Origin: Streptomyces sp. NBC_01237
GTDB taxonomy: Bacteria; Actinomycetota; Actinomycetes; Streptomycetales; Streptomycetaceae
NCBI RefSeq assembly: GCF_035917275.1
Contig: NZ_CP108508.1
Location: 3,968,001 to 4,032,000, forward strand
Length of the DNA stretch: 64,000 nucleotides
Direction: 5' to 3'
Shown here piece after piece: positions 7,418-28,941 of this stretch. The position numbers and the translations under genes are program-made. Within the stretch, counting starts at the first letter, position 1. The number at the start of each line of letters is the position of its first letter. The notes beneath the pieces were generated by a model, which did no database searches, was not told where the DNA came from, and saw only the letters and a list, made by a program, of their open reading frames with translations.

Positions 7418-7425
7418 TCCGCCTC

Positions 7426-8415
7426 ATGCTGGTAATCCGTCAATCCGATGTGGAGAAGCTCCTCAGCGGAAAGGAACGGGAACACATCGAGACGGTCCGG
7501 GCGACCTACGAACTGCACGAACAGGGCGCCACGACAGTCCCGCACTCCATTTTCCTCCGCTTTCCGGACCAGCCCGCCAACCGGATCATCGGCCTCCCTT
7601 CGTACCGCGGTGGCGACCGGCCCGCCGCCGGAATGAAGTGGATTTCCTCGTTCCCCGGGAACATCCAGTCCGGCATCGCACGCGCCAGTGCGGCGATGCT
7701 CCTCAACTCACTGCGCACCGGCCATCCGGAGGCCCTTCTCGAAGGCTCCCTGATCTCGGCCGCGCGCACCGCGGCCAGTGCCGCACTCGCCGCCGAGATG
7801 CTGACCCGCGACCGCCGCCCCGGCGGGGTTTCCCTCATCGGCTGCGGTGTCATCAACCTGGAGATCCTCCGCTATCTCAAGGCCGCCATCGACGGCCTCG
7901 AAGAAGTGACGATCTACGACAGTTCCACGGCCCGTGCCGAGGAATTCGCCCGCGCCTGCGAGGCCATTCTTCCCGAGGCCCGCATTTCTCTCGCGGCGAG
8001 CATCGACGAGGCGCTGGCCGCACAGTCCCTGATCTCCTTCGCCACCTCGGCGGGCGAGCCCCACACCGATCTGACGGCCGCGGCGCCCGGCACGGTGGTG
8101 CTGCACATCTCGCTGCGCGACATCGACCCCGAGACGCTCGTCCAGGCGCACAACATCGTGGACGACGCGGACCATGTGTGCCGCGAGCGCACCTCGCTCC
8201 ACCTCGCCGAGCGGATGACCGGGGGCCGGGCCTTCATCGACGCGTCCATCGGCCAGCTCATCGCCGGTACGAAGACGTTCACGCCGTCCCCGAAGAAGGT
8301 CACCATCTACTCGCCGTTCGGGCTCGGGGTCCTCGACCTCGCCCTGGCCGTGGATGTGCACGAGAGCGCCCGCGCGCTCGGCCTGGGTGTGGAGATCACG
8401 GACTTCCTGTCCTGA
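7426..8415 (+). CDS. SbnB-like dehydrogenase (diaminopropionate-forming)
   Basis: A 329-residue ornithine cyclodeaminase/mu-crystallin family protein with the NAD-binding loop SLIGCGVINLEILR near residue 140. In SbnB this fold oxidatively cleaves the SbnA product to L-2,3-diaminopropionate plus 2-oxoglutarate. Pairing with the SbnA-like gene directly upstream makes this more likely than ornithine cyclodeaminase activity. The ATG at 7426 (MLVIRQSDVEKLLSG) matches family N-termini; a GTG at 7405 would overlap the preceding stop by 13 bases. The diaminopropionate may be used directly, or be carbamoylated by the enzyme at 24838-25869. Confidence 0.9.
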   Translation: MLVIRQSDVEKLLSGKEREHIETVRATYELHEQGATTVPHSIFLRFPDQPANRIIGLPSYRGGDRPAAGMKWISSFPGNIQSGIARASAAMLLNSLRTGHPEALLEGSLISAARTAASAALAAEMLTRDRRPGGVSLIGCGVINLEILRYLKAAIDGLEEVTIYDSSTARAEEFARACEAILPEARISLAASIDEALAAQSLISFATSAGEPHTDLTAAAPGTVVLHISLRDIDPETLVQAHNIVDDADHVCRERTSLHLAERMTGGRAFIDASIGQLIAGTKTFTPSPKKVTIYSPFGLGVLDLALAVDVHESARALGLGVEITDFLS

Positions 8416-8482: not shown

Positions 8483-8704
8483 ATGTCCAGCGAGCTGACC
8501 GACACCACCGTCTACCGCGTCGTCCTCAACGTCGAGGAGCAGTACTCGATCTGGCGTGCCGGGCGCGAGCTGCCCGCCGGCTGGAGCGCCGAGGGCACCG
8601 AGGGCACCCGCGAGGAGTGCCTCGCCCGCATCAACGACGTGTGGAGCGACATGCGCCCGGCGAGTCTGCGCCGCCGCATGGAGAGCCGGAACGCGGCCGC
8701 CTGA
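8483..8704 (+). CDS. MbtH-like protein
   Basis: A 73-residue MbtH family protein with the family signatures [15 protein letters not shown] and the C-terminal [20 protein letters not shown]. MbtH proteins bind NRPS adenylation domains and are often needed for their folding and activity. Its place immediately before the two NRPS genes suggests it serves some or all five adenylation domains here. The ATG at 8483 follows GAGGAGAA with good spacing. It lies 67 bp after the SbnB-like gene and 100 bp before NRPS-1. Confidence 0.96.
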
Positions 8705-8804
8705 TCCGCCGCCCCCGGGGGATGCCCCGTCATCCCCGGCGGGCCCCTCACCACCACCGAGTTCTGAGTCGCATTTGGCGCCAGGTCATTCGAAGGAGCA
8801 CCTG

Positions 8805-11800
8805 TTGAACGCCGCACAGTTGCCGGGGACTTCCCTGAGCGGAACTGTCACTCCCACCCTGCCCGTGCTCGTCGCACAGCAGGCCGCCCGTACGCCCGAC
8901 GCGGCCGCCGTCCTCGACGGGGCCCGCACGCTGACCTACCGGGAGCTCGATCTCGCCGCCGACCGCACGGCGCGCTTTCTGCGCTCGGCCGGCGCAGGCC
9001 CCGGTTCGCTGGTCGGCGTGTGTCTGGGCCGGGGAATCGACCTGGTCGTCACCCTCCTGGGGGTGTGGCGGACGGGGGCCGGATATGTGCCCCTGGACCC
9101 CGGCCACCCCCAGGAGCGGCTGAAGTCCCTCCTGCTCCAGTGCGGCACCGCACTGGTGGTCACCGAGCCGGAACTGACCGGCCCGCTGGCCGCCGGGGGC
9201 ACCCGCACGCTCACCCCGCAGGACATCCGCGACGGGGCCGGCACCCTCGCGGACACCGCCGCCGCCACGGACATCGATCCGCTCGGTGTCGCGTACACGA
9301 TCTTCACCTCGGGTTCGACCGGGCAGCCCAAGGGCGTGCAGGTCACCCACGCGGGCATCGCCAACCGGGTCACCTGGGCCGTGCGGACGCACGAGCTGGG
9401 CGCCGACGACCGCATTCTGTTCAAGACCTCCGTCGGCTTCGACGCGGCGGGCTGGGAGATCTTCGCCCCGCTGATCGGCGGCGGAAGCGTCGTGATCGCC
9501 CCGGACGGCACCGAGCGCGACCCGTCGGCGCTGCTGGCCGCCGTCGCCGACGGCGGCGTCACCGTCCTCCAGGTGGTGCCCTCCGTGCTGCGCCTCCTGG
9601 TCGAGGAGGACGGCTGGGCCCGCTGCCACGCGCTGCGCCTGCTCTTCTCCGCCGGTGAGCCGCTGCACGCCGAACTCGTCGAGCAGGTCCGCGACCGGGC
9701 CGGCCGGACCCTCGGCGTGTGGAACACCTACGGGCCCACCGAGTGCTCCATCGACATCACCGCCCACCGCGTGGCCCCGGAGCAGACGTCCGGCCCGGTG
9801 CCGATCGGCCGTGCGCTGAGCAACATGCGGGTCCTGGTCATGGGCCCCGACGGCACCCCGGTCCCCAAGGGCGTCACCGGCGAGCTGTACGCGGACGGGG
9901 TCGGCCTCGCCCAGGGGTACCTGGGCCGCCCCGACCTGACCGCGGAGCAGTTCGTCCCCAACCCGTACGGCACCCCCGGCTCGCGCCTCTACCGCACCGG
10001 GGACCTGGTCCGCTGGAGCGCCGAGGGCTACCTGGAGTACCAGGGCCGCGCCGACGCCCAGCTCAAGGTCAACGGCGTACGCATCGAGCCCGGTGAGATC
10101 GAGGCCGCCCTCACCTCCCACCCGGACGTCAGCGGCGCGGCCGTCGTCGCGTTCACGGCGGAGGGCGGCGGCAAGCGGATCGGCGCGGCACTCACCACGC
10201 GCACCCCGCTCGGCCCGACGGAGCTGCGCCGGTTCCTGCGGGAGCGGCTGCCCGACAGCCATGTCCCCTCGGTCTTCCACACCGTGGACGCCCTCCCCCT
10301 GACCCCCAACGGCAAGGTGGACCGGGCCGCGCTGGCCGCCACCATGGACGAGACCGGTGCCATGGCCGGGCAGGGCGGCTACATCGCCCCGCGCAACGCC
10401 GCCGAGGAGCAGGTCGCCGAGGTCTGGGCCGCACTGCTGGGCCGGGAGAAGGTCGGCGCGCACGACGACTTCTTCGCCCTGGGCGGTACGTCGCTCCAGC
10501 TCACCCGCCTCGCCGCCAGGCTCCGCGCCTCCGGCGTCGCCATCTCGATGCGCGGCCTGTTCAGCGCCACCACCGTGGAGGCCCAGGCCAGGCTGATCGG
10601 CGCACCGTCCGACAGTGCCCGCCCGATCCCGGTCGTGTCCCGCGCCGGGGCCCTGCCGCTCTCCTCCGGGCAGCGCCGGCTCTGGTTCCTGGACCGGCTG
10701 AACCCGGGCAGCCGCGAGTGGGTCGCGCCACTGATCCTGCGGCTGCCCGCCGACACCTCGGTGGACACCCTCCAGTCCGCGCTGACCGCGCTCGGCGGAC
10801 GCCACGAGGCGCTGCGCACCCGCTACCTGGACGACGGCGGCGAGCCCCGCCAGGTGATCGGCCCGGCGGGGCCGGTGGAGCTCCGGGTCCTCGACACCAC
10901 CCGCGACGGCCTCGCGGCCCGCTTCGAGGAGCAGTTCGCCCGCGGCTTCGACCTCGCGACGGGTCCGCTGTGGCGGGTCCTGCTGGCCCGGGTGCCGGGC
11001 GAGGAGCACGTCCTGCTCGTCACCATGCACCACATCGCCTGTGACGGCTGGTCCACCGTCGTCCTGGAGCGTGAGCTGCGGGAGCTGTGCGCAGCCCGGC
11101 TGTCGGGCCGCGAGCCGGTGCTGCCCGCGACCGGGGTGCAGTACGCCGACTACGCGTCCTGGCAGCACGAGCGGCAGACCGCGGAGTTCACCGCCGGGGA
11201 GCTGGCGCACTGGCGCACCGCGCTGGACGGCATCACCCCGCTGGAGCTGCCCACCGACCGGCCCCGGCCGCCCGAGCGCGATCCGCGCGGCGCGGTCGTC
11301 CCGGTCCGGGTGGAGCCGGAGCTGGCGGCGAAGGTGGAGGAGCTGGGCCGCAGGCACGGCGCCACCCCGTTCATGACGCTGCTCACCGCGTTCGCCTCGG
11401 TGCTGGCCCGGCAGAGCGGCCAGTGGGACGTGCCGGTCGGCACCCCGGTCGCCGGGCGGACCCGTTCCGAGCTGGCCGACACGGTCGGCTTCTTCCTCAA
11501 CTCCCTCGTGGTGCGCTGCTCGTTGGCGGGCGATCTCTCCTTCGCCGAGGCGCTGGGGCGGGTCCGGGCCGCGTCCGTGGCCGCGTTCGCGCACCAGGAG
11601 CTGCCCTTCGACCGGCTCGTCGAGGAGATGCAGCCCGAGCGTGACATGTCCCGTACGCCGCTCTACCAGGTCGCCTTCGACATGCACAGCGAGGGCGTCA
11701 CCAGTGTCGCCACCGACGCGGCGGACCTGCGGGCCTTCGCGGAGGCGTGGACGGTCGCCAAGACGGACCTCTCGGTCTTCATCGGGCGCTCGGCCGACGG

Positions 11801-13835
11801 GTCGCTGGAAGGGGTCTTCGAGTACGCGACCTCGCTCTTCGACGCGGCGACCGTCGTCCGGATCAAGGAGCAGTTCATCCGCTTCCTGACCGGGGTCACG
11901 GCCGACCCGGCCGCCCGGCTCTCCACCGTGTCCCTGCTGCCCGCCGAGGAGACACGGCGGCTGCTGGAGCTGGGGACGGGCGAGCGGGCCGGCTTCGGCG
12001 ACGCGTCGGTGTGCCGGAGCTTCGAGGAGCAGGCGCTGCGCACCCCGGACGCGCCCGCGATCGGCTTCGCCGACGGCACGGTGACGTACCGGCAACTGGA
12101 CGTGCGCGCCAACCAGATGGCCCACCAGCTGCTCGCCTCGGGCGTCGGCCAGGAGTCCGTCGTCGGCGTGCTGCTGGACCGCGGGCCGAACCTCCTCGCG
12201 AGCCTGCTCGGCGTGTGGAAGGCCGGCGCGGCCTATGTGCCGATCGACCCCTCGTACCCGGCCGAGCGCATCGCCGCGATGCTCAGCACCTCGGGCGCCG
12301 TCCTCGCGATCACCGAGGAGGCGTACGCGGACCGCTTCGGCGCCCTCGGCACCGTCCTGGTCGACCGCGACCGGCCCGCGCTGGACGAGCGTCCCCGGAC
12401 CGCGCCGGAGCGTGACGAGGACGCCGATTCGCTGGCGTACACCATCTTCACCTCGGGTTCGACCGGCCGCCCCAAGGGCGTCGGCGTCACCCACCGGGGG
12501 CTCGCCAACCATGTCGGCTGGGCGGCCCGTGAGCTGGCTTCCCGGGGCGGGCGGGGCGCGCCGCTGTTCTCCTCCGTCGCCTTCGACCTCGTCGTCCCCA
12601 ACCTGTGGGCGCCGCTCGTCACCGGGCAGCGCGTCCACACCGTCGCGCAGGACACCGACATCGACGCCCTGGGCGCCGTGCTCGCCGAGGCGGGACCGTA
12701 CAGCTTCATCAAGCTGACGCCGGGACACCTCGACATCCTCGCGGAGCAGCTCACCGCCGAGCAGGCGAGCGCGCTCGCGCCGGTGCTGGTGGTGGCCGGT
12801 GAGGCGTTCACCCGGGCCACGCTGGAGCGCTGGCGCGCGCTGGCGCCCCAGACCGCGCTCATCAACGAGTACGGGCCGACCGAGGCGTCCGTGGGCACCT
12901 GCGTCTACCCGGTCCCGGCCGGGGAGTCGGCCGAGGTGCTGGCCATCGGCCACCCGCTGCCGAACATGACCATGTACGTCCTGGACGAGCACCTCGAACC
13001 CGTTCCGGTCGGTGTGCCCGGTGAGCTGTACGTCGGTGGCACGGGCGTCGCCCGCGGCTACGCGGGCCGCCCCGACCTCACCGCCGAACGCTTCGTCCCC
13101 GACCCCTTCGGCCCTGCGGGAGCCCGGCTCTACCGCACCGGCGACCTCACCCGGACCCGTGCCGACGGCGCCGTGGAGTTCCTGGGCCGACTCGACGATC
13201 AGGTAAAGATCCGTGGCTACCGCATCGAACCCGGAGAGATCCAGACCGTCGTGGCCGAGCACCCCTCGGTCCGTGACGCGGTCGTGGTGGCGCGTGAAAC
13301 GCCGGCTGGTGAGCAGCAGCTCCTCGCGTACTACGTCCCGGCCGACAGCGCCGAGGACCCGGCCGTGACCGCGTCGGACCTGGCCGCGCACTGCGCGACC
13401 CGGCTGCCCGACTACATGCTCCCGCAGGTCTACGTACCGCTGGCCGAGATCCCCCTCAACGCCAACGGCAAGACCGACCGCAAGCGGCTCCCGTCGCCCG
13501 AGGGCACCGGGGCCGAGGGCGCCGCCGGACGTGTCGAGCCGCGCACCGCCACCGAGGAGCGCATCGCCGACATCTGGGCCGAACTGCTCGGGGTGCGGGT
13601 CGGTGTGGAGGACAGCTTCTTCCACTCCGGCGGCAACTCGATCCTCGCCATCCGGCTGATCTCGCGCATCCAGGAGGAGTTCGACATCGACTTCAAGGTG
13701 CGCACCGTTTTCGAGGGCCCCACCGTGGCCCGGCTGGCCGTCGCCACCGAGAACGCCATCCGTGCGGAGATCGCCGCACTTTCCCCAGCAGAGCTGACGA
13801 ACGGCCAGGAACTGGCTAAGGAGTTCACCGCATGA
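8805..13835 (+). CDS. NRPS-1: A-PCP-C-A-PCP (modules 1 and 2)
   Basis: A 1676-residue NRPS subunit. Approximate domains: A1 20-500, PCP1 serine in GGTS near 562, C2 617-1045 (HHIACDGW near 742), A2 1072-1555, PCP2 serine in GGNS near 1610. There is no N-terminal C domain, matching the separate C protein at 829-2235. Read by eye, the A1 pocket is D-A-W-Q-F-A-T-I-D-K, close to the glutamine code DAWQFGLIDK; 3-ureidoalanine would be a near isostere. A2 reads D-L-P-K-V-A-E-V-G-K, two changes from the asparagine code DLTKVGEVGK. No epimerisation domain is present. I chose TTG 8805 because it follows GAAGGAG at good spacing and opens just before A1; the longer in-frame extension overlaps mbtH. The stop overlaps the NRPS-2 start (ATGA). 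Confidence 0.95.
12155..13478 (+). repeat. Near-identical A-domain segment, copy 1 (A2)
   Basis: Most of the A2 coding segment is almost base-for-base the same as the A4 segment at 18682-19999; long runs, including the last 90 or so bases before the end, are identical. Silent sites are also conserved, so this points to recent duplication or gene conversion rather than selection on the protein alone. Confidence 0.85.
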
Positions 13836-16800
13836 GTACCGCCGCGATCACACCCGCCGGTTTCGACGCGGACGGGGCGAGAGAGGAGCTGCTGCGTCAG
13901 CGGCTCGCCGGCCGCCGCAGCGGACGCCGGGCCACCATCCCCCGCGCCGACCGGTCCGCCCCGCTGCGCCTGTCCCCCGGCCAGGAGCAGATGTGGTTCC
14001 TCAGCCGCCTCGACCCGGACAGCACCCAGTACCTCGTCCCGCTGATCGTCCGCCTCACCGGTGAGCTGGACACCGCCGCGCTCGCCGAGTCCTGGCAGCG
14101 GCTGACGGACCGGCACGAGATCCTGCGTACCCGCTACGGCGTGGCGGGGGAGGAGCCCGTCCAGCTGATCTCGCCCGCCGAGCGGGTCACCCTGCCGCTG
14201 GACGACCTCACCGGCCTTCCGGCGTCCGAGCGCGAGGCCCGGGTCGGATCGATCATCGCCGACGACCTGTTCGTCCCGATCGACCTCGCCCGGGACCTCC
14301 CGGTGCGCGCCCGCCTGATCCGTCTCGCGGACGACGAGCACGTCCTCGGCATCGTCTTCCACCACATCGCCTGCGACGCCTGGTCCACCGAGGTCATCGG
14401 CCGGGAACTGAGCGCCCTGTACGCGGCGCTGTCCACCGGCACCGAGCCGGAACTGCCCGCCGTTCCCGTCCAGTACGCCGACTTCGCGGCCTGGCAGCGC
14501 ACCGAACTGTCCGGCGCCGCCCTCGAAGCGCAGCTCGACTACTGGAGGACGACCCTGGCGGGTCTCACCCCCATCGAGCTGCCCACCGACCGGCCGCGCA
14601 GGGCGGTCCGCGACGCGACGGGCGCCTCCGTCGCCTTCGGGGTACCGGACTCCCTCGCGGGCCGGCTGCGGGAGTTCGCGCAGCGCCACGACGCCACCCC
14701 GTTCATGGTGGTGCTCACCGCCTTCCAGAGCCTGCTGGCCCGCTACACCGGCTCCACCGACATCGCGGTCGGCACCGTGGTCTCCGGGCGCGGCCGTCCC
14801 GAGCTCCAGGGCATGGTCGGCTTCGGCATCAACAGCCTGGTGCTGCGCGCCGAATGGAGCGACGACCCGTCGTTCCAGGAGCTGCTGGCCCGCACCAAGG
14901 ACACGGTCCTGGGCGCCTTCGACCACCAGAGCACCCCCTTCGCCCGGCTGATCGACGCGGTCCAGCCGGAGCGCGACCTGTCGCGCACCCCGCTGTTCGA
15001 CGTCGCCCTCACCATGCACGGCGAGCGCACCAGCGCGTTCACCCTGCCGGGGCTGCGCGCCGAGCCGTTCCAGGGCGAGGGCAACGCCGCCAAGTACGAC
15101 CTCGACCTCCAGCTGCGGGAGGCCGCCGACGGCACCCTGCACGGCCATCTGGAGTACGCCGTCGAGCTGTTCGACCGCGAGAGCGCCGAGCGGCTGACCG
15201 CGCACCTGGTGCGGCTCCTGGACGCCGCGGTCACCGCCCCGCACACGAGCGTCGCCGAACTGGACTTCCTCGGGGAGAGCGAGCTGGACCTGCTCACCGC
15301 GGGCGCGGCGCTCTCCGGCGAGGTCACCGGCACCGTGCACCAGGTGTTCGAGGAGCAGGCTCACCGCACCCCGGACGCCGTCGCCGTCCACTTCGACGGC
15401 CACGACCTGACGTACGCCGAACTGAACGCGCGGGCCAACCGGGTCGCGCACCACCTGCGCGGTCTCGGGGTCGGCCCGGAGACGCTCGTGGGGGTCTGCC
15501 TGGAGCGCGGGCTCGACCTGCTGCCCGCCCTGATCGGCGTGCTGAAGGCGGGCGGCGCCTATCTGCCGCTCGACCCCTCGGTCCCCGCCGAGCGGATCGG
15601 CTTCATGCTGGAGGACGCCGCCGTCCCGGTCGTGGTGACCCAGAGCGCGCACCAGGAGATGTTCTCCGGCATCCACACCGGCCCGCTGGTGGTGCTCGAC
15701 CGCGACGCCGAGGCGCTGGCCGGGCAGCCGGACACCGACCCGGCGCCCACCGCCGACGCCGACAGCCTGATCTACGTCATCTACACCTCCGGGTCGACGG
15801 GCCGCCCCAAGGGCGTCTGCCTCACCCACGCCAATGTGCTGCGGCTGTTCACGGTGACGGCGGAACAGACCCGGTTCCCCGCCTCCGACGTGTGGACGCT
15901 GTTCCACTCCTACGCGTTCGACTTCTCCGTCTGGGAGATGTGGGGTGCGCTGCTGCACGGCGGCAGCCTGGTCGTCGTCCCGAAGGACGTGGCGCGCGAC
16001 CCCGACAAGTTCCTCGACCTGCTGGTCGAGCGGCGCGTGACGGTGCTCAACCAGACGCCCTCCGCGTTCCGTTCGCTGGTGAGCGCCGCCCGCGAGGGCG
16101 ACCCCCGCATCGACCGGCTCGCCCTGCGCACCGTGGTGTTCGGCGGCGAGAAGCTGGAGGTCGCGGACCTGCGGCCGTGGGCGGACCGGCTGGGTCTGGC
16201 GGCCCCGACGCTCGTCAACATGTACGGGATCACCGAGACGACCGTCCATGTCACCCACCACGAGCTGGGCGCACAGGACCTCACGGGCACCGGCAGCCCC
16301 GTCGGCGTCCCGCTGGACGACCTCTCGATACGGATCCTGGACCGGCACGGCAACCCGGCGCCGATCGGCGTCCCGGGCGAGATCCATGTCGCGGGGCGCG
16401 GCATCGCCCGCGGCTACCTCGGCCGTCCGGGGCTCACCGCCGAGCGCTTCGTGCCCGACGCGTTCGGGGCGCCCGGCGACCGGCTGTACCGCAGCGGCGA
16501 CGTGGCCCGCCGGCTCGCCGACGGCAGCCTGGAGTTCCTCGGCCGCAACGACGAGCAGGTCAAGATCCGCGGCTTCCGCATCGAGCTGGGCGAGATCAAC
16601 GCCGCCCTCGCCGCCCAGGACGGGGTGCTGGACGCCGTCGTCCTGGTCCGCGAGAGCACACCGGGCGACAAGCAACTCGTCGCCTATGTCGTCCCGGCGG
16701 AGTCGGTGGACACCGCCCCCGACACCGGTGACCTGCGCGCCGCGCTCGCCCGTGATCTGCCCGACTACATGGTCCCGGCCACCTTCGTGGTCCTGGAGCG

Positions 16801-19800
16801 CCTGCCGCTGACGGTCAACGGCAAGCTCGACACCAAGGCGCTGCCCGCCCCCGCCGCGGGCGCCGTGCGCGCCGCGGGCAAGGTCTACGCCGCCCCGCGC
16901 ACCCCGCTGGAGCACCGCGTCGCCGCCATCTGGCGGGACGTGCTCGGCGTCGACCCGATCGGCGTCCACGACAGCTTCTTCGACCTCGGCGGCCACTCGC
17001 TGCGCGCCATCAACCTCGCGGGGCACCTGCGCGAGGCGGGTCTCGACGTGTCCGTACGGGACATCTTCGAGCACCGCACCGTGGCGCTGCTGGCCGAGCG
17101 GCTGGCCGACCGGCCCGAGGTGCGCGCGGCACACGGTGTGCGGCCGTTCGCGCTGGTCACGGCCCCGGACCGGGAGCGGCTCCCGGAGGGCCTGGACGAC
17201 GCGTACCCGATGTCGCAGGTGCAGATCGGCATGGTCGTGGAGATGCTCAGCGACACCGGCCGGCACCCGTACCACAACGTCACCTCCTTCCGGATCCGTG
17301 ACGAGCGGCCCTTCGACGTCGCGGCGCTGCGGGCCTCGGTCCGCTCCGTGATCGACCGGCACGACGTCCTGCGCACCTCTTTCGACCTGAACTCCTACGC
17401 GGTGCCGATGCAGTTGGTGCACAGCGAGGTCGCGGTGCCGGTGACCGAGCGCGATCTGCGCGGGCTCACCGACGACGAAGTACAGCTGTCGCTGCGCGAG
17501 TTCACCCGGCGGGAGCGGGCCGAGCTGATCGGTCTGGACACCCCGCCGCTGCTGCGGCTGATCGGCCACTCCCGCGACGACGGGAGCTGGTGGCTCACGA
17601 TCACCGAGAACCACGCGATCCTGGACGGCTGGAGCCACCACTCGCTGCTCATGGAGATCGTCGAGGGCTACCGCACGGCCCGCGACGGCCGTGCCATCGA
17701 GACGCCCGCCGCCCCCGACGTGCGGTTCGCGGACTTCATCGCGGCCGAGGTCACCTCCCGCGAGGCCGGGGACGACCGGGCGTACTGGAGCGGCATCGTC
17801 CGGGACTACCCGGCCTTCGCCCTCCCCGACGCCTGGTCCGGGGACGGTGAGGCGGGTGCCCCGTACCGCGTCAGGGTGCCCTTCCACGACCTGGAGGACC
17901 GGCTGCGCGCGCTGGCCTCGGCGGCGGGCGCTTCGCTGAAGAGCGTGCTGCACGCGGCACACCTGAAGGTGATGAGCTCGGTCACCGGGGACGAGCGGTT
18001 CTTCACCGGCCTGGTCTGCAACGCCCGGCCCGAGGCGCTCGGCGCCGACGGCGTCTACGGCATGCACCTGAACACGCTGCCGTTCGCGTTCGACGGGGCC
18101 ACCGGCACCTGGCGCGAGCTGGTGGAGCGGGTCTTCGCCCGCGAGGTCGAGCTGTGGCCGCACCGCAGCTTCCCGATGCCGGACATCCAGCGCGAGGCGG
18201 AGGACGGGCAGCGGCTGGTCTCCGTGCGCTTCAGCTACCACGACTTCGACCAGGTCGACCGCGAGCAGGTCGACTACCTGGCGAGCATCGACGACAGCCC
18301 GACCGAGTTCCCGCTGGGCGTCTCGGCGCGGCTGGGCCACCTCTTCCTGACCGGTGGCCGCAAACACCTCGACGAGGTCGCGCTCGACCGGCTCGCGGGC
18401 ACACTGCGCCAGGTCCTGGAAGCGATGGCCGCCGACCCGGAGGGCGACGCCGCGGCCTCGTACCTGCCGGCGGCGGAGCGCGGGCGGCTGCTCGCCGAAG
18501 GCACGGGCGAGCAGGCCGACTTCGCCTCCGCCCCGGTCCTGCGGCGCTTCGAGGAGCAGGTCCTGCGCACCCCGGACGCGCCCGCCGTGGGCTTCGGAGA
18601 GGTCTCGCTGAGCTACGCGGAACTGGACGCGCGGGCCAACCGCCTCGCGCACCGGCTGCTCGCCTCGGGTGCCGGGGCGGGCTCCGTCGTCGGCGTGCTG
18701 CTGGACCGCGGGCCGAACCTCCTCGCGAGCCTGCTCGGCGTGTGGAAGGCGGGCGGGGCCTATGTGCCGATCGACCCGTCGTACCCGGCCGAGCGCATCG
18801 CCGCGATGCTCAGCACCTCGGGCGCCGTCCTCGCGATCACCGAGGAGGCGTACGCGGACCGCTTCGGCGCCCTCGGCACCGTCCTGGTCGACCGCGACCG
18901 GCCCGCGCTGGAGGCACTTCCGGCGACCGCGCCGGAGCGCCACGAGGACGCCGACGCACTCGCGTACACCATCTTCACCTCGGGTTCGACCGGCCGCCCC
19001 AAGGGCGTCGGCGTCACCCACCGGGGACTCGCCAACCATGTCGGCTGGGCCGCGCGCGACCTCGCCCCGCAGGGCACCGGAGGCGCACCGCTGTTCTCCT
19101 CGGTCGCCTTCGACCTCGTCGTCCCCAACCTGTGGGCGCCGCTCGTCACCGGGCAGCAGGTCCACACCGTTCCGCAGGACACGGACATCGCCGACCTGGG
19201 CGGGGTGCTCGCCGAGGCGGGACCGTACAGCTTCATCAAGCTGACCCCCGGCCATCTGGACGTCCTGGCCGAGCAGTTGACCGCCGGGCAGGCGAGTGCG
19301 CTCGCGCCGGTGCTGGTGGTGGCCGGTGAGGCGTTCACCCGGGCGACCCTGGACCGCTGGCGCGCGCTGGCGCCCGGCACACGGCTCATCAACGAGTACG
19401 GGCCGACCGAGGCGTCCGTCGGCACCTGCGTCTACCCGGTGCCCGAGGACGAGTCGGCGGAGGTGCTGGCCATCGGCCACCCGCTGCCGAACATGACCAT
19501 GTACGTCCTGGACGCGGGGCTCTCCCCGGTGTCCGTCGGTGTGCCCGGTGAGCTGTACGTCGGCGGCACGGGCGTCGCACGCGGCTACGCGGGCCGCCCC
19601 GACCTCACCGCCGAACGCTTCGTCCCCGACCCCTTCGGACCGGCCGGTGCCCGCCTCTACCGCACCGGCGACCTGGCCCGGACCCGTGCCGACGGCGCCG
19701 TGGAGTTCCTGGGACGGCTGGACGACCAGGTCAAGATCCGTGGATACCGGATCGAGCCCGGAGAGATCCAGAGCGTCGTCGCCGAGCACCCCTCGGTCCG

Positions 19801-22800
19801 TGACGCCGTCGTCGTCCCCCTGGAGGGCCCGTCCACCGGCGATCTGCGGCTGGTCGCCTACTACGTGCCGGCGGACGGTACGGAGGTGACCTCGGCGGAC
19901 CTGGCCGCGCACTGCGCGACCCGGCTGCCCGACTACATGCTCCCGCAGGTCTACGTACCGCTGGCCGAGATCCCCCTCAACGCCAACGGCAAGACCGACA
20001 AGCGCGCGCTGCCCGCCCCCGAAGCGGAGGAACTGGACGGCGGCACCCCCTACGTCGCCCCGCGCACCCTCACCGAGGCGCGGGTCGCCGAGATCTGGTG
20101 CACGGTCCTCGAACGGGACCGGGTCGGCGTCGACGACGGCTTCTTCGACCTCGGCGGTCACTCGATCCGCGCGGTCGCCCTGGTCGGCGCGCTGCGCGCG
20201 GCGGGCTTCGACGTCGGCGTACGGGAGGTCTTCGAGTACCGCACGGTGGCCGAGCTGAGCCAGTTCCTCACCGGACGCCCGGCCCCCGCCGAGCCGGCCC
20301 CGCCGGTGGAGCCCTTCGCGCTGCTGGCCGAGGAGGACCGGGTACGGCTGCCCGAGGGTGTGGTCGACGCGTACCCGATGTCCCAGGTGCAGCTCGGCAT
20401 GCTCGTGGAGATGCTGGCCGACCAGGAGAAGCGGGCCTATCTCAACGTCGCCTCGTTCCGCATCACGGACGGCACACCGTTCGACGGGGCCGCGCTGCGC
20501 CGGGCCCTGGACGTGGTCACCGGCCGGCACGAGATGCTGCGCACCTCCTTCCACCTCGACTCCTTCACCACCCCGCTCCAGCTCGTCGCCGCGGACACCG
20601 TGATTCCGCTGACGGTCGAGGATCTGCGCGGAGCGCAGGACCGCGAGCAGCGGGTGGCCGGCATCATGGCCGAGGAGCGCTCCATCCCCTTCGACCTGGC
20701 CACGGCTCCGCTGCTGCGGATGACCGCCCAGGTGGAGGACGAGGGCTCCTGGCGGCTCGTGGTGACGGTCTGCCACGCGATCACCGAGGGGTGGAGCCAC
20801 CGCGCCCTGCTCATGGAACTGCTCGACGTCTACCGCGAGCTGCGCGACGGCACGGCCCCGGCCGCGTTCACCGCTCCCCCGGTGCGTTACGCCGACTTCA
20901 TCGCGGCGGAGCTCGCCTCCCTGGAGTCCGCGGACGACCGGGCGTACTGGAGGCACGTCATCGGCCGGTACGCGCCGTTCGCGCTGCCGCCCGTGTGGGA
21001 GGGCGACACCTCCGCGCCGCGCGAGAAGTACCGGGTCGCCGTGCCCGTGCACGATCTGGAGCCGCGCCTGCGCGCCCTGGCCACCTCGGCCCAGGTGTCG
21101 TTCAAGAGCGTGCTGCTGGCCGCGCACCTGAAGGTGATGAGCATGGTCACCGAGGAGGACGCCTTCTTCAGCGGCCTGGTGTGCAGCGCACGGCCCGAGT
21201 CGCCGGGCGCCGAGCGGGTCTACGGCATGTACCTCAACACGCTGCCCTTCGCCTTCGACCGGGCGAGCGGCAGCTGGAGCGACCTGGTGCGCCAGGTCTT
21301 CGCCCGCGAGGCGGAGGTCTGGGACCGCCGCAGGTTCCCGATGCCCGTCATCCAGCGCGATGCGGACCTCGGCCGGCTGCTCCATGTCCGGTTCAGCTAC
21401 CAGGACTTCGACCATGTCGACACCAAGCTGGTCGACGCGGAGGCGAGCAGCGGCGAGGGCGGCACGGAGTTCGCGCTCGCGGTCTCGGCCGTCTCCGGTC
21501 ACCTGCTGCTGACCACGCACACCCACGCCCTGGGCCGAGGCCACGCGGACCGGCTCACCGGTCTGTACCGGCAGGTCCTGGAGGCGATGGCCGCCGATCC
21601 CGGCGGCAGCGCCGAGGCGACGTTCCTCCCCGAGGGCGAGCACGCGTGGCTGCGGGAACAGAACGCGACCGGACGGGAGTTCCCGGAGCGGACCGTGCTC
21701 CGCCGCTTCGAGGAGCAGGCGGCCCGCACCCCGCACGCCGTGGCCGTGAGCCACCGGGGCGAGGAGGTCGCCTACGCGGAGCTGGACGCCCGTGCCGACC
21801 GCGTCGCGCACCGGCTGGTCGCCGCGGGCATCGGTGCGGAGAGCGCCGTCGCGGTGCTCCTGGACCGGAGCCCGGGGCTGATCGCCACGCTGCTCGGGGT
21901 GTGGAAGGCGGGCGGCGCCTATGTGCCGATCGACCCGTCGTACCCGGCCGAGCGCATCGCGAGCATGTGCGAGAGCGCGGGCGTCGTCGCCGCGGTGACG
22001 GAGCCCCCGTACGCGGACGGCTTCCCCACCGGCGTTCCGGTGCTGCTGCTGGAGGACCTGGAGCGGGCGGGCACCGACGACGGCACGGGCACGGCGCCCG
22101 CCCGGAGCGAGGACCCGGACCGCCTCGCGTACGTCATCTTCACCTCCGGCTCCACGGGCCGGCCCAAGGGCGTCCAGATCCCGCACCGCGGGCTGGCCAA
22201 CCACGTCGCCTGGGCGGCCGAGGACCTGGCCTCCCGGGGCACGGGCGGGGCGCCGCTGTTCTCCTCGGTGGCCTTCGACCTGGTGGTGCCCAACCTGTGG
22301 GGACCGCTGGTGACCGGGCAGGCCGTGCATGTGGTGGCGCAGGACACGGCTCCGGCCGACCTGTCCGCCGCGCTGCTCGCGTCGGGCCCGTACAGCTTCG
22401 TCAAGCTGACCCCCGGCCACCTGGACATCCTGACCGAGCAGCTCACCACCGAGCAGGTGGAGCGGCTCAGCCAGGTGTACGTGGTGGCGGGCGAGGCACT
22501 GCCCGGCGAGACGGCCAACCGCTCGCTGGAGGTGCTCGGCGAGGGGCGGATGATCAATGAGTACGGGCCGACGGAGGCATCGGTCGGCTCCACGATCCAC
22601 CCGGTGACCGGCCATGTCGCCCTCGACGTGGTGCCGATCGGCCGCCCGCTGCCGAACATGACGGCGTATGTGCTGGACGCGTCGATGCGGCCGGTGCCGG
22701 CGGGTGTGCTGGGCGAGCTGTACGTCGGCGGTACGGGAGTGGCGCGCGGCTACGCGGGCCGCCCGGACCTGACGGCGGAGCGCTTCGTACCGGACCCGTT

Positions 22801-24841
22801 CGGGCCCGCCGGAGCGCGGCTGTACCGCACGGGTGACCGGGCGCGGCTGCTGGCCGACGGGAACGTGGAGTTCCTGGGACGGCTGGACGACCAGATCAAG
22901 ATCCGCGGCTACCGGATCGAGCTGGGCGAGGTGCAGGCGGTCGTGACCGCCCACCCGGCCGTGCGCGACGCGGTGGTCACGGTGCACGAGCCCACCCCGG
23001 GCGACAGGCGCCTGGTGGCGTACTGCGTGCCGGTCGCGGGCCAGGAGCTGCCGAGCGCCGCGGTGCTGGCCGACGACTGTGCCCGTCACCTGCCGGAGTA
23101 CATGGTCCCCTCCGCCTTCGTGGCGCTGGAGAGCATCCCGCTCAACGCCAACGGCAAGGTGGACCGGCGGGCGCTGGCCGCGCCGGACCGCGCGTCGATG
23201 CGCTCCGAGGACGCCTATGTGGCGCCGAGGACGGCGACGGAGCGGATGCTCGCCAAGATCTGGTCCGAGGTCCTGGGCGTCGACCAGATCGGCATCCACG
23301 ACAAGTTCTTCGAGCTGGGCGGGCACTCGATCCTGATGATTCAGGTGCTGGCCGCGGCCCGCCGCGAGGGGCTGGCCGTCTCGGTCTGGCGCATGTACCA
23401 GCACGGGACGCTGATCGACCTCGCCGCGGCGATCGACGAGGACGCGGAGGCGGCCCGCCGGGCGGCGGAGCCGGAGCCGGAGCCCGTCGTGGAGGAGGCG
23501 AAGCCCGCCGATGTGGTGATGTCGGCGGAGCTGCTCGCGACGCTGCTGGAACAGGCGTCGGGCGGCGACCGGAGCCGGCTGGCCGAGGGCCCGCTGGCAG
23601 AGGTCGCGGCGCTGCTGGGGCTGGCCGCCACGGCAACTCCCCAGGTGGATCGGGCGGATCGGACGACTGCGGCTGACCGGGCGGCTACGGCTGACCGGGC
23701 GGCTTCGGCCGCCTTCCCGCTGGACGATCTGCGCGCGCTCATGGCCGAGCACCAGGTGCCCGGCGTGAGCATCGCCGTACTCGGCGCCGACGGCTCGACC
23801 GAGCTGCACGGGGCCGGGGTGCTGTCCACCGGCGGCGACGAACCGGTCACCCCGGACACGCTGTTCCAGGTCGGCTCGATCAGCAAGCACGTCACGGCAC
23901 TGGCCGCCCTGCGGCTGGTGGCGGAGGGCCGCATCGCCCTGGACGACCCGATCGGGAAGCACCTGACCTCCTGGCGGCTCCCGGACCTCGCCACCGCCCC
24001 CGGAGAGGTCACCGTCCGCCATCTCCTGGGCCACACGGCGGGGCTGGCCCGGCACCGCAGCGTCGGGTTCCCGCCCGGCGAGGAGGTGCCCACGCTGCTG
24101 GACCTGCTGTCGGGCACCGGCCCGGTCACCACCCCGCAGGTGAAGCGGCAGCTCGTCCCCGGCTCCACGTTCCGCAAGAGCAGCACCCACTACTGGGTGC
24201 TCCAGCAGCTGCTGGAGGACGTCACCGGGGAGTCGTTCCAGGAGCTGATGGACCGGCTCGTGTTCACCCCGCTGGAGATGACGGGCAGCAGCTTCGACCA
24301 GGAGTTCCCGCTCACCGCCGGTCGCCCGGTGGCGCTCGGGCACCACGCCAAGGGCGTCGCGCTCGACGGCGGCTGGCGCAACCGCGCCCATCTCGCCGCC
24401 GCCGGACTGTGGACGACGGCCGAGGACATCGCCAGGGTCGCCCGCCAGGCGCGCGCCTCGCTGCTCGGCCTGCCGGGCGGGCTGCTGCCCACCGAGGTCG
24501 CCGGGGAGCTGCTCACCGGACACCCCGGGAGCTTCTACGGCCTCGGCACCATCGTCGACGACACCGGTGACGACGCCGAGTTCGGGCACGGCGGCGAACC
24601 CGCCGGCTACTGGAACCTCTCCCTCAGCCACCTCAGCACCGGCGTCGGACTGGTCGCCCTGACCAACTCCGACAGCGGCAAGGGCGTCGTCAAGCATCTG
24701 ACCGCCACCCTCAGCCGCCGCGAACAGAGCTTCGGCCGGGGCACGTTGATGGCCGACTGGGCGGCGGCGGGCACCGGCGACCGGGCACCGGCGAACCATC
24801 CGCTGCTGAGCGCGGTGGTCACCGAGGAGGACCGCGCATGA
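13832..24841 (+). CDS. NRPS-2: (C-A-PCP)x3 with C-terminal beta-lactamase-fold domain
   Basis: A 3669-residue subunit holding modules 3-5. Approximate domains: C3 47-490 (HHIACDAW), A3 501-1000, PCP3 GGHS near 1052; C4 1125-1545 (ENHAILDGW), A4 1570-2055, PCP4 GGHS near 2108; C5 2180-2600 (VCHAITEGW), A5 2624-3110, PCP5 GGHS near 3162; an Ala/Glu/Asp-rich linker; a serine hydrolase domain 3294-3669. Pockets read by eye: A3 D-F-W-N-V-G-M-V-H-K (threonine); A4 and A5 both D-L-P-K-V-A-E-V-G-K, as in A2. The last domain has the SxxK motif SISK and HGG, typical of class C beta-lactamases and DD-peptidases, in place of an ordinary thioesterase. It presumably releases or cyclises the chain. No E domain is present. 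Confidence 0.95.
18682..19999 (+). repeat. Near-identical A-domain segment, copy 2 (A4)
   Basis: Partner of the A2 segment at 12155-13478. The similarity falls away in the flanking C and PCP coding parts, so the exchanged unit is the adenylation domain. Both copies have the same pocket residues. Confidence 0.85.
23713..24838 (+). other. Serine beta-lactamase/PBP-fold release domain within NRPS-2
   Basis: Residues about 3294-3669 of NRPS-2 match the class C beta-lactamase/esterase family: nucleophile motif [22 protein letters not shown], the family-typical helix LLEDVTG, and [11 protein letters not shown] (the KTG-equivalent HGG). The tyrosine motif YxN normally found before the helix reads KSS here ([15 protein letters not shown]), so the general base differs from standard members. 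Stand-alone PBP-type thioesterases such as SurE cyclise peptides; fusion at the end of an NRPS is less usual. A conventional GxSxG thioesterase domain is absent from the protein. Confidence 0.85.
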
Positions 24842-25869
24842 CAGGACGAGCACACCCGACCCCGCGCCGGCAGACCGATCCGGAGGACACCGTGCAGGAC
24901 TCATCCGTACGCCACCTGATATCCATCGACGACCTCACCGACCAGGACATCGACACCATCGTCGCCGACGGCTGCGCGTTCGCCTCCGACGGCGTCCGCG
25001 GCGAACGGCCGCTGACCGACGAGGTGGTGGGCGTCTACTTCAGCAAGACGTCCACCCGGACCCGTACCGCGTTCTCCAGCGGCGCGCTGCGGCTCGGCGC
25101 CTCGCTGCTCACCTACGGGCCCGGCGACCTCCAGCTCAACACCGGGGAGACCAGCGAGGACACCGGGGCCGTGCTGTCCCGGATGCTCGATGTGCTGGTC
25201 GCCCGGACCGCGGGCGACCCGGCGGAGATGCGGGCCTGGGCCCGGCAGGACCGCATGTCCGTCATCAACGCGATGAGCGCCGACGAACACCCCACCCAGG
25301 CGCTCACCGACCTCACCACGCTCCGGATGACGTTCGGCCGCCTCACCGGCCTGCGCGTCCTGTACGTCGGCGAGGGCAACAACTCCGCCGCCGCCCTGGC
25401 CCTCGCGCTCACCCGCTTCGAGGGCACCGAGCTGGAGCTGCGCACCCCGCCCGGCTACGGGCTCGACCCGGCGACGCTCCGACGGGCCGAGCGGAACGCG
25501 GGCGTCTCGGGCGCGCGCATCCGCGAACGCCACGACATGGCGGACCTGCCCGAAGGGTTCGACGCCATCTACACCACCCGCTGGCAGACCACCGGCACGG
25601 CGAAGGCCGATCCCGACTGGCGCACGGTCTTCGCCCCCTTCCAGGTGTCCGAAGCGCTCTGGGACACCAGCCCCAAGGCGGTCTTCCTGCACGACCTGCC
25701 CGCGCACCGGGGCGACGAGGTCACCGGCGGGGTGCTGGACGGGCCCCGGAGCATCGCCTTCGAGCAGGCCGAGAACAAGATGCACAGCGCGATGGCGGTA
25801 CTGAAGTGGTGCCGCGCGGGGGCCTCGGGCACCCCGGCGGCCTCCACGGGCGCCGCGCAGCGCGGATGA
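24838..25869 (+). CDS. Ornithine/aspartate carbamoyltransferase-family enzyme
   Basis: A 343-residue carbamoyltransferase. The carbamoyl-phosphate motif is STRTR (in KTSTRTRTAF, near residue 70), with a second conserved motif DEHPTQAL near 147. The ornithine-binding HCLP motif reads HDLP (HDLPAHRGDEV, near 284) and the SMG loop reads TTG (TRWQTTGTA), so the amino acceptor is probably not ornithine. With SbnA/SbnB homologues in the operon, the best candidate is diaminopropionate, giving 3-ureidoalanine, in free or carrier-bound form. Viomycin and zwittermicin pathways use related enzymes for ureido groups. The ATG at 24838 overlaps the NRPS-2 stop (ATGA); a GTG at 24892 after GGAGG is an alternative start and would give 325 residues. 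Confidence 0.88.
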   Translation: MTGRAHPTPRRQTDPEDTVQDSSVRHLISIDDLTDQDIDTIVADGCAFASDGVRGERPLTDEVVGVYFSKTSTRTRTAFSSGALRLGASLLTYGPGDLQLNTGETSEDTGAVLSRMLDVLVARTAGDPAEMRAWARQDRMSVINAMSADEHPTQALTDLTTLRMTFGRLTGLRVLYVGEGNNSAAALALALTRFEGTELELRTPPGYGLDPATLRRAERNAGVSGARIRERHDMADLPEGFDAIYTTRWQTTGTAKADPDWRTVFAPFQVSEALWDTSPKAVFLHDLPAHRGDEVTGGVLDGPRSIAFEQAENKMHSAMAVLKWCRAGASGTPAASTGAAQRG

Positions 25870-27200
25870 GCATCACCGGCGAAGCGGCGCCGCCGGTGGC
25901 GGACGCGGCGGGACCCTCCCCGGTCCCGCTGCGCCGCAACCGCGACTTCCTGCTGCTGTGGAGCGGCGCGGGGCTCACCCTCCTCGGCTCCCGCGCCTCC
26001 TCCGTGGCCTACCCGCTGCTGCTGCTCTGGTCCACCGGATCGGCGTCGGCGGCGGCCGTGGCGGGGTTCGCCGCGCAACTGCCGCAGCTGCTCATCCAGT
26101 TGCCGGCCGGTGCGCTGGTGGACCGCTGGGACCGCAAACGGATGATGATCCTGTGCAGCGCGGGGTGCGCCCTGAGCGCGGTCGGTGTCGTCGTCGCGGT
26201 GGCCCTCGGGCGGGTGTGGCTGCCGCATCTGGCCGCCGCCGCGTTCGTCGAGGGCACCCTGATGGTCTGCTACCGGCTGGCCGAGCGGGCCGGCGTACGC
26301 CATGTGGTCCCGGCGTCGCAGCTGACGGCGGCGCTCGCCGGGAACGAGGCGCGGGGACGGGCCGCCGGGCTCATCGGGCAGCCCGCCGGAAGCGTCGCGT
26401 TCGCGGCGGTCAGGTGGTCGCCGTTCCTGCTGGCCGGAGTGGCGCACCTGCTCTCGCTGGCCGCGGTCCTGCTGATCAGGAAGCCGTTCCAGCAGCCCCG
26501 GAGGTCGGCCGCGCGGCGCAGGATCGGCCCCGAGATCGCCGAAGGGGTGCGGTGGCTGTGGCAGCGCCGCTTCCTGCGGCGGATCACGCTGCTGATCTCC
26601 GGCAGCAACGTGGTCTTCCAGGCGCTCGCGCTGCTGCCCGCCTTCGTCCTGTACGAGGACGGCCTCTCGGCCGGGACGGTGGGCGTGATCGCCGCGATCA
26701 GCGGGGCCGGCGGGGCCTGCGGGGCGCTCACCGGGGGCTGGACCACGCGCCGGCTCGGGCTGCCCGTGCTGGTCTGCGCGGCCCTGGCGGCCTGGGCCCT
26801 CCTGGTCCCGGCCCTGGCCCTGACCAGGTCCCCCGTCGTGCTCGGGGCGCTGTTCGCCGGGATGAGCTTCGTCGGCGGGGTGGTCAACGTCGCCGGGGGG
26901 ATCTACCAGGTCGAGATCACGCCCGACCCGCTCCAGGGACGCGTCAACAGCGTGCTCCAGCTGTTCGGTTCGGGGGCCAACTCGCTCGGCGTCCTGGCCG
27001 GCGGGCTGCTCCTGGACGCCTTCGGCGCCGCGGTCACCGCCGCCGCCCTCGGCGCGGTGATGGCCCTGCTGGCGCTCACCGCCGCCCTGTCCAAGCTCTC
27101 CCGGCTCCACCGGCTCACTCACGCATCACCCGCACCATCCACCACACCGTCCGACACACCACCCGACGCACCGTCCGACAAACAAGGAGAAACCGCATGA
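25866..27200 (+). CDS. MFS exporter, EntS-like
   Basis: A 444-residue membrane protein with about 10-12 hydrophobic segments and the MFS loop signature GALVDRWDRKRMM between the second and third. It belongs to the MFS_3/EntS-like group, which includes exporters of siderophores and other peptides. Its location inside the biosynthetic operon, overlapping the carbamoyltransferase stop (ATGA) and followed by a dioxygenase gene with the same overlap, suggests export of the product or self-protection. The C-terminus ends in a short Ser/Thr/Pro/Asp-rich tail. Substrate is inferred from context only. Confidence 0.87.
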   Translation: MSITGEAAPPVADAAGPSPVPLRRNRDFLLLWSGAGLTLLGSRASSVAYPLLLLWSTGSASAAAVAGFAAQLPQLLIQLPAGALVDRWDRKRMMILCSAGCALSAVGVVVAVALGRVWLPHLAAAAFVEGTLMVCYRLAERAGVRHVVPASQLTAALAGNEARGRAAGLIGQPAGSVAFAAVRWSPFLLAGVAHLLSLAAVLLIRKPFQQPRRSAARRRIGPEIAEGVRWLWQRRFLRRITLLISGSNVVFQALALLPAFVLYEDGLSAGTVGVIAAISGAGGACGALTGGWTTRRLGLPVLVCAALAAWALLVPALALTRSPVVLGALFAGMSFVGGVVNVAGGIYQVEITPDPLQGRVNSVLQLFGSGANSLGVLAGGLLLDAFGAAVTAAALGAVMALLALTAALSKLSRLHRLTHASPAPSTTPSDTPPDAPSDKQGETA

Positions 27201-28143: not shown

Positions 28144-28941
28144 GTGAGCACCACCGAGCGCGAGTACCGCGCACTGTGGGACAGCGGCGGCACGCACGTC
28201 TGGCAGGGCACCACCCACGGTGCCCCGCCCGGCGCCGACCTGCGGCTCCTCTCCGCCGCCGAGCGCACGGTGATGCGCCGCAGACCGCCAGCCGAGGGGC
28301 AGCGGTACGCGGGCGCGCACATCGCCGTACGCCGGGTCCTGGCCCGGTACCTGGAGGTACCTCCGGCCGGAATCCGGTTCGGCACGAAGCCCTGTCCCTG
28401 GTGCGCGGACCCCGATCACGGCAGACCGGTCGTGATCGGGCCGCCCACCGCCCTCGACTTCAACCTCTCCCACGCGGGGCCGCACTGGGCCCTCGCGGTG
28501 ACCACCTCGGGACAGGTCGGCGTCGATGTGGAGGACGGCAGGTCGGGAAACCCGGCCGGCGCCGCCTCCCTGGTCATGTCCCCATCCGAACTGGCCCATC
28601 TGGACGGCCTGCTGGACGACGGCGCACGACAGGCCGCCTTCCTGCGGTGCTGGACCCGCAAGGAGGCGGTTGTGAAGGCGATCGGCACCGGTATCACCGC
28701 GGACCTCAAGGCCCTGGAGGTCCGCCCCGAGCACCCGGGCCCCCTGGTCGTGCACGGCGGCGAACCGTCGGGCGGCGACGACTGGCTGGTCCAGGACCTG
28801 CCCAGCGAGCGCGGCCTGTTCGTGGCACTCGCCCGCCCGGCCGGCTCCACCGGACCGGTGCTCCTGCGCGATCCGCACGCCCCGGACGCCGCGGCCCGGC
28901 AGCCGGGCTCCCACTCCGTCCTCGAACCCTTCCGCTCCTGA
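28144..28941 (+). CDS. Sfp-type 4'-phosphopantetheinyl transferase
   Basis: A 265-residue Sfp-family transferase that should move phosphopantetheine from CoA to the serines of the five PCP domains and the free ACP. Diagnostic motifs are FNLSHAG, VGVDVED near residue 125 (metal-binding Asp and Glu) and WTRKEAVVKAIGTG near 170. The GTG start lies five bases after the preceding stop, so it belongs to the same operon. A cluster-borne transferase implies the pathway can activate its own carriers. Confidence 0.95.
   Translation: MSTTEREYRALWDSGGTHVWQGTTHGAPPGADLRLLSAAERTVMRRRPPAEGQRYAGAHIAVRRVLARYLEVPPAGIRFGTKPCPWCADPDHGRPVVIGPPTALDFNLSHAGPHWALAVTTSGQVGVDVEDGRSGNPAGAASLVMSPSELAHLDGLLDDGARQAAFLRCWTRKEAVVKAIGTGITADLKALEVRPEHPGPLVVHGGEPSGGDDWLVQDLPSERGLFVALARPAGSTGPVLLRDPHAPDAAARQPGSHSVLEPFRS

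What the first reader, a model, noticed from the sequence alone, without database searches (positions are those of the whole stretch)
24838..25869. Carbamoyltransferase with altered acceptor site: likely 3-ureidoalanine synthesis
The ornithine motif HCLP reads HDLP and the SMG loop reads TTG, while the carbamoyl-phosphate motif is intact. SbnA/SbnB homologues in the same operon make diaminopropionate. The A1 pocket is glutamine-like, and 3-ureidoalanine is an isostere of glutamine. The three independent signs converge on a ureidoalanine building block.
Basis: partly seen in the sequence, partly recalled or inferred. Interest (0 to 1): 0.85.

Follow-up and report, generated by a model that had tools for sequence, protein, structure and literature searches.

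The report
Diaminopropionate carbamoyltransferase supplying an NRPS
This Streptomyces gene belongs to an already described enzyme family that turns diaminopropionate into the glutamine look-alike 3-ureidoalanine, most likely as the first building block of an unidentified peptide made by the neighbouring peptide synthetase genes.

Summary
ORF 24838-25869 is a transcarbamylase with intact carbamoyl-phosphate motifs, TTRWQTTG where ornithine carbamoyltransferase has DxxxSMG, and HDLP for HCLP. SbnA and SbnB pass their curated cut-offs. Among 295 genomes of the genus, SbnA (56% or more) is in 25 of 32 with a close DPTCase and in 11 of 263 others. The newer part is where the ureidoalanine goes. A1 reads DAWQFATID, two of nine positions from the tyrocidine glutamine code. 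The pocket DA[WL]QxAT[IV]D occurs exactly once in 16 of 18 DPTCase+SbnA clusters fetched, and in 2 of 12 SbnA loci without DPTCase nearby (both in broken assemblies). In two related DPTCase-free clusters the matching domain reads DAWQSGTNE or DAWQAGTVN. So carbamoylation probably precedes loading and A1 activates 3-ureidoalanine. The Asn-like modules (A2, A4, A5) persist without DPTCase and are probably not its target. The product is unknown; nothing was tested at the bench. Verdict: new member of a known kind.

The parts
24838..25869 (+). DPTCase-type carbamoyltransferase, 343 aa; STRT 72-75, HPTQ 151-154, T247-R248-W-Q-T-T-G, D286 of HDLP, K314
   Evidence: signature from PMC4581275
6434..7417 (+). 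SbnA-type PLP enzyme (2,3-diaminopropionate synthesis)
   Evidence: TIGR03945 423 bits, cut-off 350
7405..8415 (+). SbnB-type dehydrogenase (2,3-diaminopropionate synthesis)
   Evidence: TIGR03944 403 bits, cut-off 327
8556..13835 (+). NRPS1: A1-T-C-A2-T; A1 code DAWQFATID (proposed ureidoalanine), A2 DLPKVAEVG
   Evidence: Pfam; sequence and codes. Start codon uncertain (GTG ORF with a low-complexity leader)
13832..24841 (+). NRPS2: C-A3-T-C-A4-T-C-A5-T plus a C-terminal beta-lactamase-type domain; A3 DFWNVGMVH (Thr-like, recalled), A4 and A5 DLPKVAEVG
   Evidence: Pfam; codes
25869..27200 (+). MFS transporter, probable product exporter (inferred)
   Evidence: PF07690
27197..28138 (+). TauD-type Fe(II)/2-oxoglutarate dioxygenase a
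   Evidence: PF02668; relatives of 60% or more in 9 of 9 fetched DPTCase clusters with DLPKVAEVG
28144..28941 (+). 4'-phosphopantetheinyl transferase
   Evidence: PF01648
28957..29928 (+). TauD-type Fe(II)/2-oxoglutarate dioxygenase b
   Evidence: PF02668; a relative lies about 3 kb from a DAWQ-type A domain in G028, G113 and G181:C2

Best explanation
The gene encodes a diaminopropionate transcarbamylase. SbnA and SbnB make L-2,3-diaminopropionate. The enzyme transfers the carbamoyl group of carbamoyl phosphate to its beta-amino group, giving 3-ureidoalanine (albizziine). In the usual OTC pocket an Asp of the 240s loop helps bind the acceptor; here that Asp is Thr247, and Asp286 of HDLP plus Arg248 take over, so that a side chain two carbons shorter fits (this binding mode is a published model, not shown here). 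Free 3-ureidoalanine is then activated by A1, the first NRPS module, whose pocket is glutamine-like, and becomes residue 1 of a pentapeptide predicted as ureidoalanine - Asn-like - Thr - Asn-like - Asn-like. Shown: genes, motifs, pocket codes and co-occurrence. Inferred: acceptor, order of steps, A1 substrate, residue order.
For: The loop and HDLP match the DPTCase signature of PMC4581275, and the T-to-D (39) and D-to-K (28) spacings equal those implied by its residue table. The protein falls outside ArgF- and PyrB-type rows (branch support 86) and with two proteins from VioD-bearing, tuberactinomycin-type clusters. SbnA and SbnB pass their cut-offs. Co-occurrence over 295 genomes: 25 of 32 against 11 of 263, Fisher 1e-21 without correction for kinship. 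The A1-type pocket is in 16 of 18 fetched DPTCase+SbnA clusters and in 2 of 12 SbnA loci without DPTCase nearby: 0 of the 10, plus G028 and G113. A genome-wide motif scan kept 30 places in 28 genomes; 26 of the 28 hold a DPTCase, against 59 of 295 overall. Related clusters without DPTCase read DAWQSGTNE (G254, one contig) and DAWQAGTVN (G213).
Against: No biochemistry. A padanamide-type enzyme that uses diaminobutyrate shares HDLP and TRWQ. Two of 18 DPTCase+SbnA clusters (G181a, G193) show no such pocket in the DNA first fetched, and 4 further DPTCase clusters (G031, G154, G168, G080) do not either; of four more loci G150 has it and G020, G127 and G107 do not. G028 and G113 hold the pocket, SbnA and SbnB, yet no DPTCase was found, in assemblies of about 1300 and 480 contigs; in G113 pocket and SbnA are on different contigs. 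G159 has a second cluster with this pocket about 90 kb from its DPTCase. A review of viomycin places VioL carbamoylation after peptide assembly (PMC9403184, passage). Shared descent alone would also make these genes co-occur.
Confidence: 0.75

Rival explanations
1. The enzyme is a DPTCase but acts late, on a Dap residue already in the peptide or on a carrier, as described for VioL in viomycin; A1 or another module loads Dap.
For: A review orders VioL after assembly (PMC9403184, passage), and CmnA-A1 loads L-Dap in capreomycin (PMC12400406, passages). G028 has SbnA, SbnB and a DAWQ-type pocket on one contig with no DPTCase found.
Against: None of the five A domains here has the acidic code D[VI]W[EQ]xTADD seen in 4 of the 7 DPTCase-free SbnA clusters that show A domains; that this code means Dap is my guess, and it also occurs in some DPTCase clusters (G074, G181b, G154). 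A1 is Gln-like, and this pocket follows DPTCase more than SbnA. Five relatives (L160-L164) pair DPTCase with SbnA/SbnB-like genes with no A domain in the 5.5 kb fetched.
Confidence: 0.15
2. 3-Ureidoalanine is loaded by the DLPKVAEVG modules (A2, A4, A5), so that the product has up to three ureidoalanines, and A1 loads glutamine.
For: DLPKVAEVG is the commonest code (34 of 188 A segments) in the DPTCase loci; its Asn-like pocket could hold a ureido group.
Against: DLPKVAEVG domains occur in G254 and G213, where no DPTCase was found, and DPTCase clusters G037 and G156 show no DLPK domain but have DAWQFATID.
Confidence: 0.1
3. The acceptor is L-2,4-diaminobutyrate (padanamide-type DBTCase) or ornithine.
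For: DBTCase shares HDLP and TRWQ, and the review says that the two are hard to separate by sequence.
Against: The loop ends TTG, not SMG; SbnA and SbnB make Dap; no diaminobutyrate pathway gene was seen among the window genes that I annotated, which are not all of them. The genome has a separate ArgF-type protein with HCLP and DVWVSMG.
Confidence: 0.07

Closest known systems
L-2,3-diaminopropionate transcarbamylase (DPTCase) of viomycin, capreomycin and zwittermicin (gene names VioL, CmnL, ZmaT; the last two recalled)
   Same: Same motifs (T/S)RWQTTG and HDLP, same C-terminal residue spacing, same Dap-making partners; proteins from two VioD-bearing clusters are 51-52% identical and fall in the same large branch
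   Different: Other cluster and other peptide; here a Gln-like A1 suggests that ureidoalanine is loaded as a free amino acid, whereas VioL is described as acting after assembly
L-2,4-diaminobutyrate transcarbamylase (DBTCase) of padanamide
   Same: HDLP and TRWQ loop
   Different: Loop ends SMG there, TTG here; acceptor made by another route
Ornithine carbamoyltransferase (ArgF)
   Same: Fold and carbamoyl-phosphate motifs
   Different: DxxxSMG and HCLP replaced; score under the TIGR00658 cut-off
Tyrocidine synthetase Gln A domain (DAWQFGLIDK)
   Same: 7 of the 9 pocket positions compared equal A1
   Different: Gly301 is Ala and Leu322 is Thr in A1

Membership tests
DPTCase | Common motifs SxRT, HPxQ, HxLP | tested here: met
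   STRT 72-75, HPTQ 151-154, HDLP 285-288
DPTCase | (T/S)RWQTTG in the 240s loop | tested here: met
   TTRWQTTG at 246-253; 108 of 109 DPTCase-type rows have xRWxTTG
DPTCase | Asp in HDLP and Lys near the C-terminus, at the published spacing | tested here: met
   T247 to D286 is 39, D286 to K314 is 28, as for T211, D250 and K278 in PMC4581275
DPTCase | Published N-terminal residue numbers (Q76, R100, H128, Q131, N159, T160) at fixed offsets | tested here: inconclusive
   A plain offset from S50 misses most of them in the window and in a probable VioL alike; numbering or a length difference, not resolved
DPTCase | Carbamoylates L-2,3-diaminopropionate | not testable with these tools
   No assay; indirect support from SbnA/SbnB and co-occurrence
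DBTCase | TRWQSMG loop | tested here: not met
   Window reads TRWQTTG
Ornithine carbamoyltransferase | DxxxSMG and HCLP; TIGR00658 cut-off | tested here: not met
   TTRWQTTG and HDLP; 230 of 281 bits
SbnA / SbnB | Score over the curated cut-offs of TIGR03945 / TIGR03944 | tested here: met
   423 over 350; 403 over 327
Gln-type A domain (A1) | DAWQFGLIDK pocket | tested here: inconclusive
   DAWQFATID: 7 of 9 positions the same

The most novel reading that the evidence does not exclude
DA[WL]QxAT[IV]D is a dedicated NRPS pocket for free 3-ureidoalanine, derived from the glutamine pocket mainly by Thr322 and Ala301. It marks a broad actinobacterial group of undescribed peptides in which Dap is carbamoylated before loading, unlike the order described for viomycin.
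Probability: 0.6. Interest if true: 0.5.

Novelty: new member of a known kind. Interest (0 to 1): 0.38.

Why it matters
Many of these genes are labelled ornithine carbamoyltransferase in public records (names). Reading them as DPTCases corrects that, and the linked pocket gives a testable rule for predicting 3-ureidoalanine in unknown peptides. It would also make the order of carbamoylation and loading testable.

Tried and rejected
Co-occurrence with SbnA on one contig only: too strict, because assemblies are broken, and the ~50% identical DPTCase subgroup often sits beside divergent SbnA/SbnB-like genes under my 56% line. The 10 kb flanks were too short: SbnA lies 18-24 kb from DPTCase at 13 of the 19 places where both are within 60 kb. 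A literature search for six pocket codes found one paper, with the Gln code; a second asked for papers with at least two of six other codes and found none. So the Thr, Asn, Ser, Gly and DAQDLGVVDK readings are recalled. Searches for ureidoalanine-bearing products listed no paper that I recognised as describing this cluster; I saw listings with abstract starts (25 of 30 papers) and opened passages of four papers from them (PMC4581275, PMC6022934, PMC9403184, PMC12400406). I rejected ornithine as acceptor (own ArgF; motifs) and chance. Structure prediction was not run: it returns no coordinates from which to measure a pocket. A mapping of the review's residue numbers by plain offset failed beyond STRT.

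Full report
What is there. ORF 24838-25869 (+, 343 aa) is a transcarbamylase (both OTCase Pfam domains). It overlaps the NRPS2 stop by 4 bases and sits in a same-strand run: SbnA 6434-7417, SbnB 7405-8415, NRPS1 8556-13835, NRPS2 13832-24841, this gene, MFS 25869-27200, TauD 27197-28138, PPTase 28144-28941, TauD 28957-29928. The window lies at G000:C1:3968001-4032000, and the genome has two other relatives of this protein at 30-33%: one reads DVWVSMG and HCLP, like ArgF; the other groups with the PyrB-like rows.

The motif claim. Against solved OTCases, TTRWQTTG stands where they have TDVW(T/A)SMG and HDLP where they have HCLP (three alignments shown). STRT and HPTQ are intact. The protein scores under the curated cut-off of all 16 NCBIfam models listed. 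A 2015 review (PMC4581275, passages read) already gives (T/S)RWQTTG plus HDLP as the mark of DPTCase, and TRWQSMG plus HDLP for DBTCase. The spacing T247-D286-K314 equals that implied by the review's T211-D250-K278. The N-terminal numbers of the review I could not reproduce: a plain offset from S50 fails beyond STRT.

Relatives. A protein search gave 3755 hits among 8000 candidates scored; 120 are listed, most of the named ones as ornithine carbamoyltransferase. Named genome loci: the best 80 of 185 were kept. Of 96 records examined for motifs (the window included), 92 gave HDLP, 1 HCLP (own ArgF-type L004) and 3 none (PyrB-like L005, and L029 and L088, whose extracted pieces were 21 and 9 residues). 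In a tree of 122 distinct proteins, 7 ArgF-type and 6 PyrB-type rows stand apart from 109 DPTCase-type rows, the window among them (support 86, quick method). Of the 109, 108 have xRWxTTG plus HDLP; L205 has RWQTMG plus HDLP. Two of the 109 come from clusters with VioD (capreomycidine synthase, over cut-off) about 14 kb away, so they are probable VioL/CmnL orthologues.

Dap supply. SbnA at 56% or more is in 25 of these 32 and in 11 of the other 263. Fisher p is 1e-21 without correction for kinship. SbnA is within 60 kb of 19 of the 34 such DPTCase places (18 genomes); in 6 further genomes it is on another contig, and in G080 it is on the same contig but about 1.75 Mb away. SbnB-like matches at E 1e-50 are in 164 of 295 genomes and say little.

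Which module. Pocket codes (9 positions, GrsA numbering recalled): A1 DAWQFATID, A2, A4 and A5 DLPKVAEVG, A3 DFWNVGMVH. DAWQFGLIDK is the tyrocidine Gln code (PMC2866473 Table 2, passage), so A1 differs at two of nine positions. I fetched 22 DPTCase clusters and 10 SbnA loci without DPTCase nearby and read their codes. Of the 22, 18 also have SbnA at 56% or more; 16 of these 18 have exactly one DA[WL]QxAT[IV]D. G181a shows no A domain and G193 no match in the DNA first fetched; G193 has DAWQTGTID about 30 kb off and G181 has DAWQCATID about 150 kb off. The other 4 of 22 have no such code (G031 no A domain, G154 and G168 other codes, G080 DASQFAHID). Of four further DPTCase loci with flanks, G150 has DAWQSATID, G127 and G107 DASQFAHID, G020 DAQDVGVVN. 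Of the 10 controls, 0 have the pocket; 7 show A domains, 4 of these with D[VI]W[EQ]xTADD, an acidic pocket that may fit Dap, and 3 with DYYPTTMR[VI]. But two more SbnA+ genomes without a DPTCase hit, not among the 10, do hold it: G028 (DAWQCATID, same contig as SbnA and SbnB) and G113 (DAWQSATID, other contig). So the control is 2 of 12. In the named and plasmid loci, with mostly short flanks, 16 of the 72 loci that show A domains, besides the window, hold the pocket.

Genome-wide check. A 33-base pattern for NTYGPTE(C/A)(S/A)(I/V)D, one mismatch allowed, hit 36 places in 34 of 295 genomes. I dropped 6: five with a changed residue 322 or 331, and G082, unlike at residue 328 only, whose pocket proved to be DAWDAGTVD. 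Of the 30 places left in 28 genomes, 26 genomes hold a DPTCase (59 of 295 do overall), Fisher 9e-19; with G082 kept it would be 26 of 29. The exceptions G028 and G113 have SbnA and SbnB, very broken assemblies and only 31-34% hits, the level of ArgF and PyrB. The pattern covers only part of the pocket (G035 reads DADDVGTVD and G193 DAWQTGTID) and was drawn from DPTCase-linked domains, so it asks only whether such domains occur elsewhere.

Natural controls. G254 (one contig) and G213 have DLPK-type clusters, and no DPTCase was found in either genome; their A1-like domain reads DAWQSGTNE and DAWQAGTVN. So DLPK domains do not need DPTCase, and in these two the A1 pocket differs where it is missing; G028 and G113 are the counter-cases. 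G037 and G156 have DPTCase and DAWQFATID but show no DLPK domain.

Order of steps. In viomycin VioL is described as acting after assembly (PMC9403184, passage), and CmnA-A1 loads L-Dap (PMC12400406, passages). In the two VioD-bearing clusters one A domain reads DAQDLA(V/I)VD, near a Gln code (DAQDLGVVDK) that I recall and did not find in the library. Here no acidic Dap-like pocket is present and A1 is Gln-like, so I think free Dap is carbamoylated first. That is inference.

Verdict. The enzyme fits DPTCase by its published loop, HDLP and C-terminal spacing; that is a known kind. The link between DPTCase and a Gln-derived pocket looks useful; my paper searches listed nothing on it that I recognised, in an open-licence library only and mostly from listings.

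Noticed in passing
window 23729-24682 (NRPS2 C-terminus): NRPS2 ends in a fused beta-lactamase-type domain (residues about 3300-3617), possibly a PBP-type release domain (recalled name); in L001 a serine hydrolase is a separate gene right after an NRPS.
   Followed up: partly
window 27197-29928: Both TauD-type dioxygenases have relatives in 9 of 9 fetched DPTCase clusters with DLPKVAEVG, 0 of 5 with only DLPKI/DLPG codes and 0 of 2 with DLTK, though in these last two the contig ends 1-2 kb past DPTCase. They may hydroxylate residues loaded by these modules.
   Followed up: partly
L197, L198, L207: A relative of the second TauD enzyme lies about 3 kb from a DAWQ-type A domain with no DLPK domain in view; it might hydroxylate ureidoalanine.
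   Followed up: no
L205 (G035:C18): A DPTCase-like protein with hybrid loop YTARWQTMG plus HDLP, between the DPTCase and DBTCase signatures.
   Followed up: no
L160-L164 (five genomes): DPTCase in tandem with SbnA- and SbnB-like genes (41-45%) and no A domain in the 5.5 kb fetched.
   Followed up: no
G019: A genome of the same species has no DPTCase, SbnA or SbnB hit at the thresholds used: the cluster seems to vary between strains.
   Followed up: no
window 829-2765 (-) and 4323-6305 (-): A condensation domain with a nearby carrier domain and an acyl-CoA dehydrogenase on the opposite strand upstream of SbnA; role unknown.
   Followed up: no
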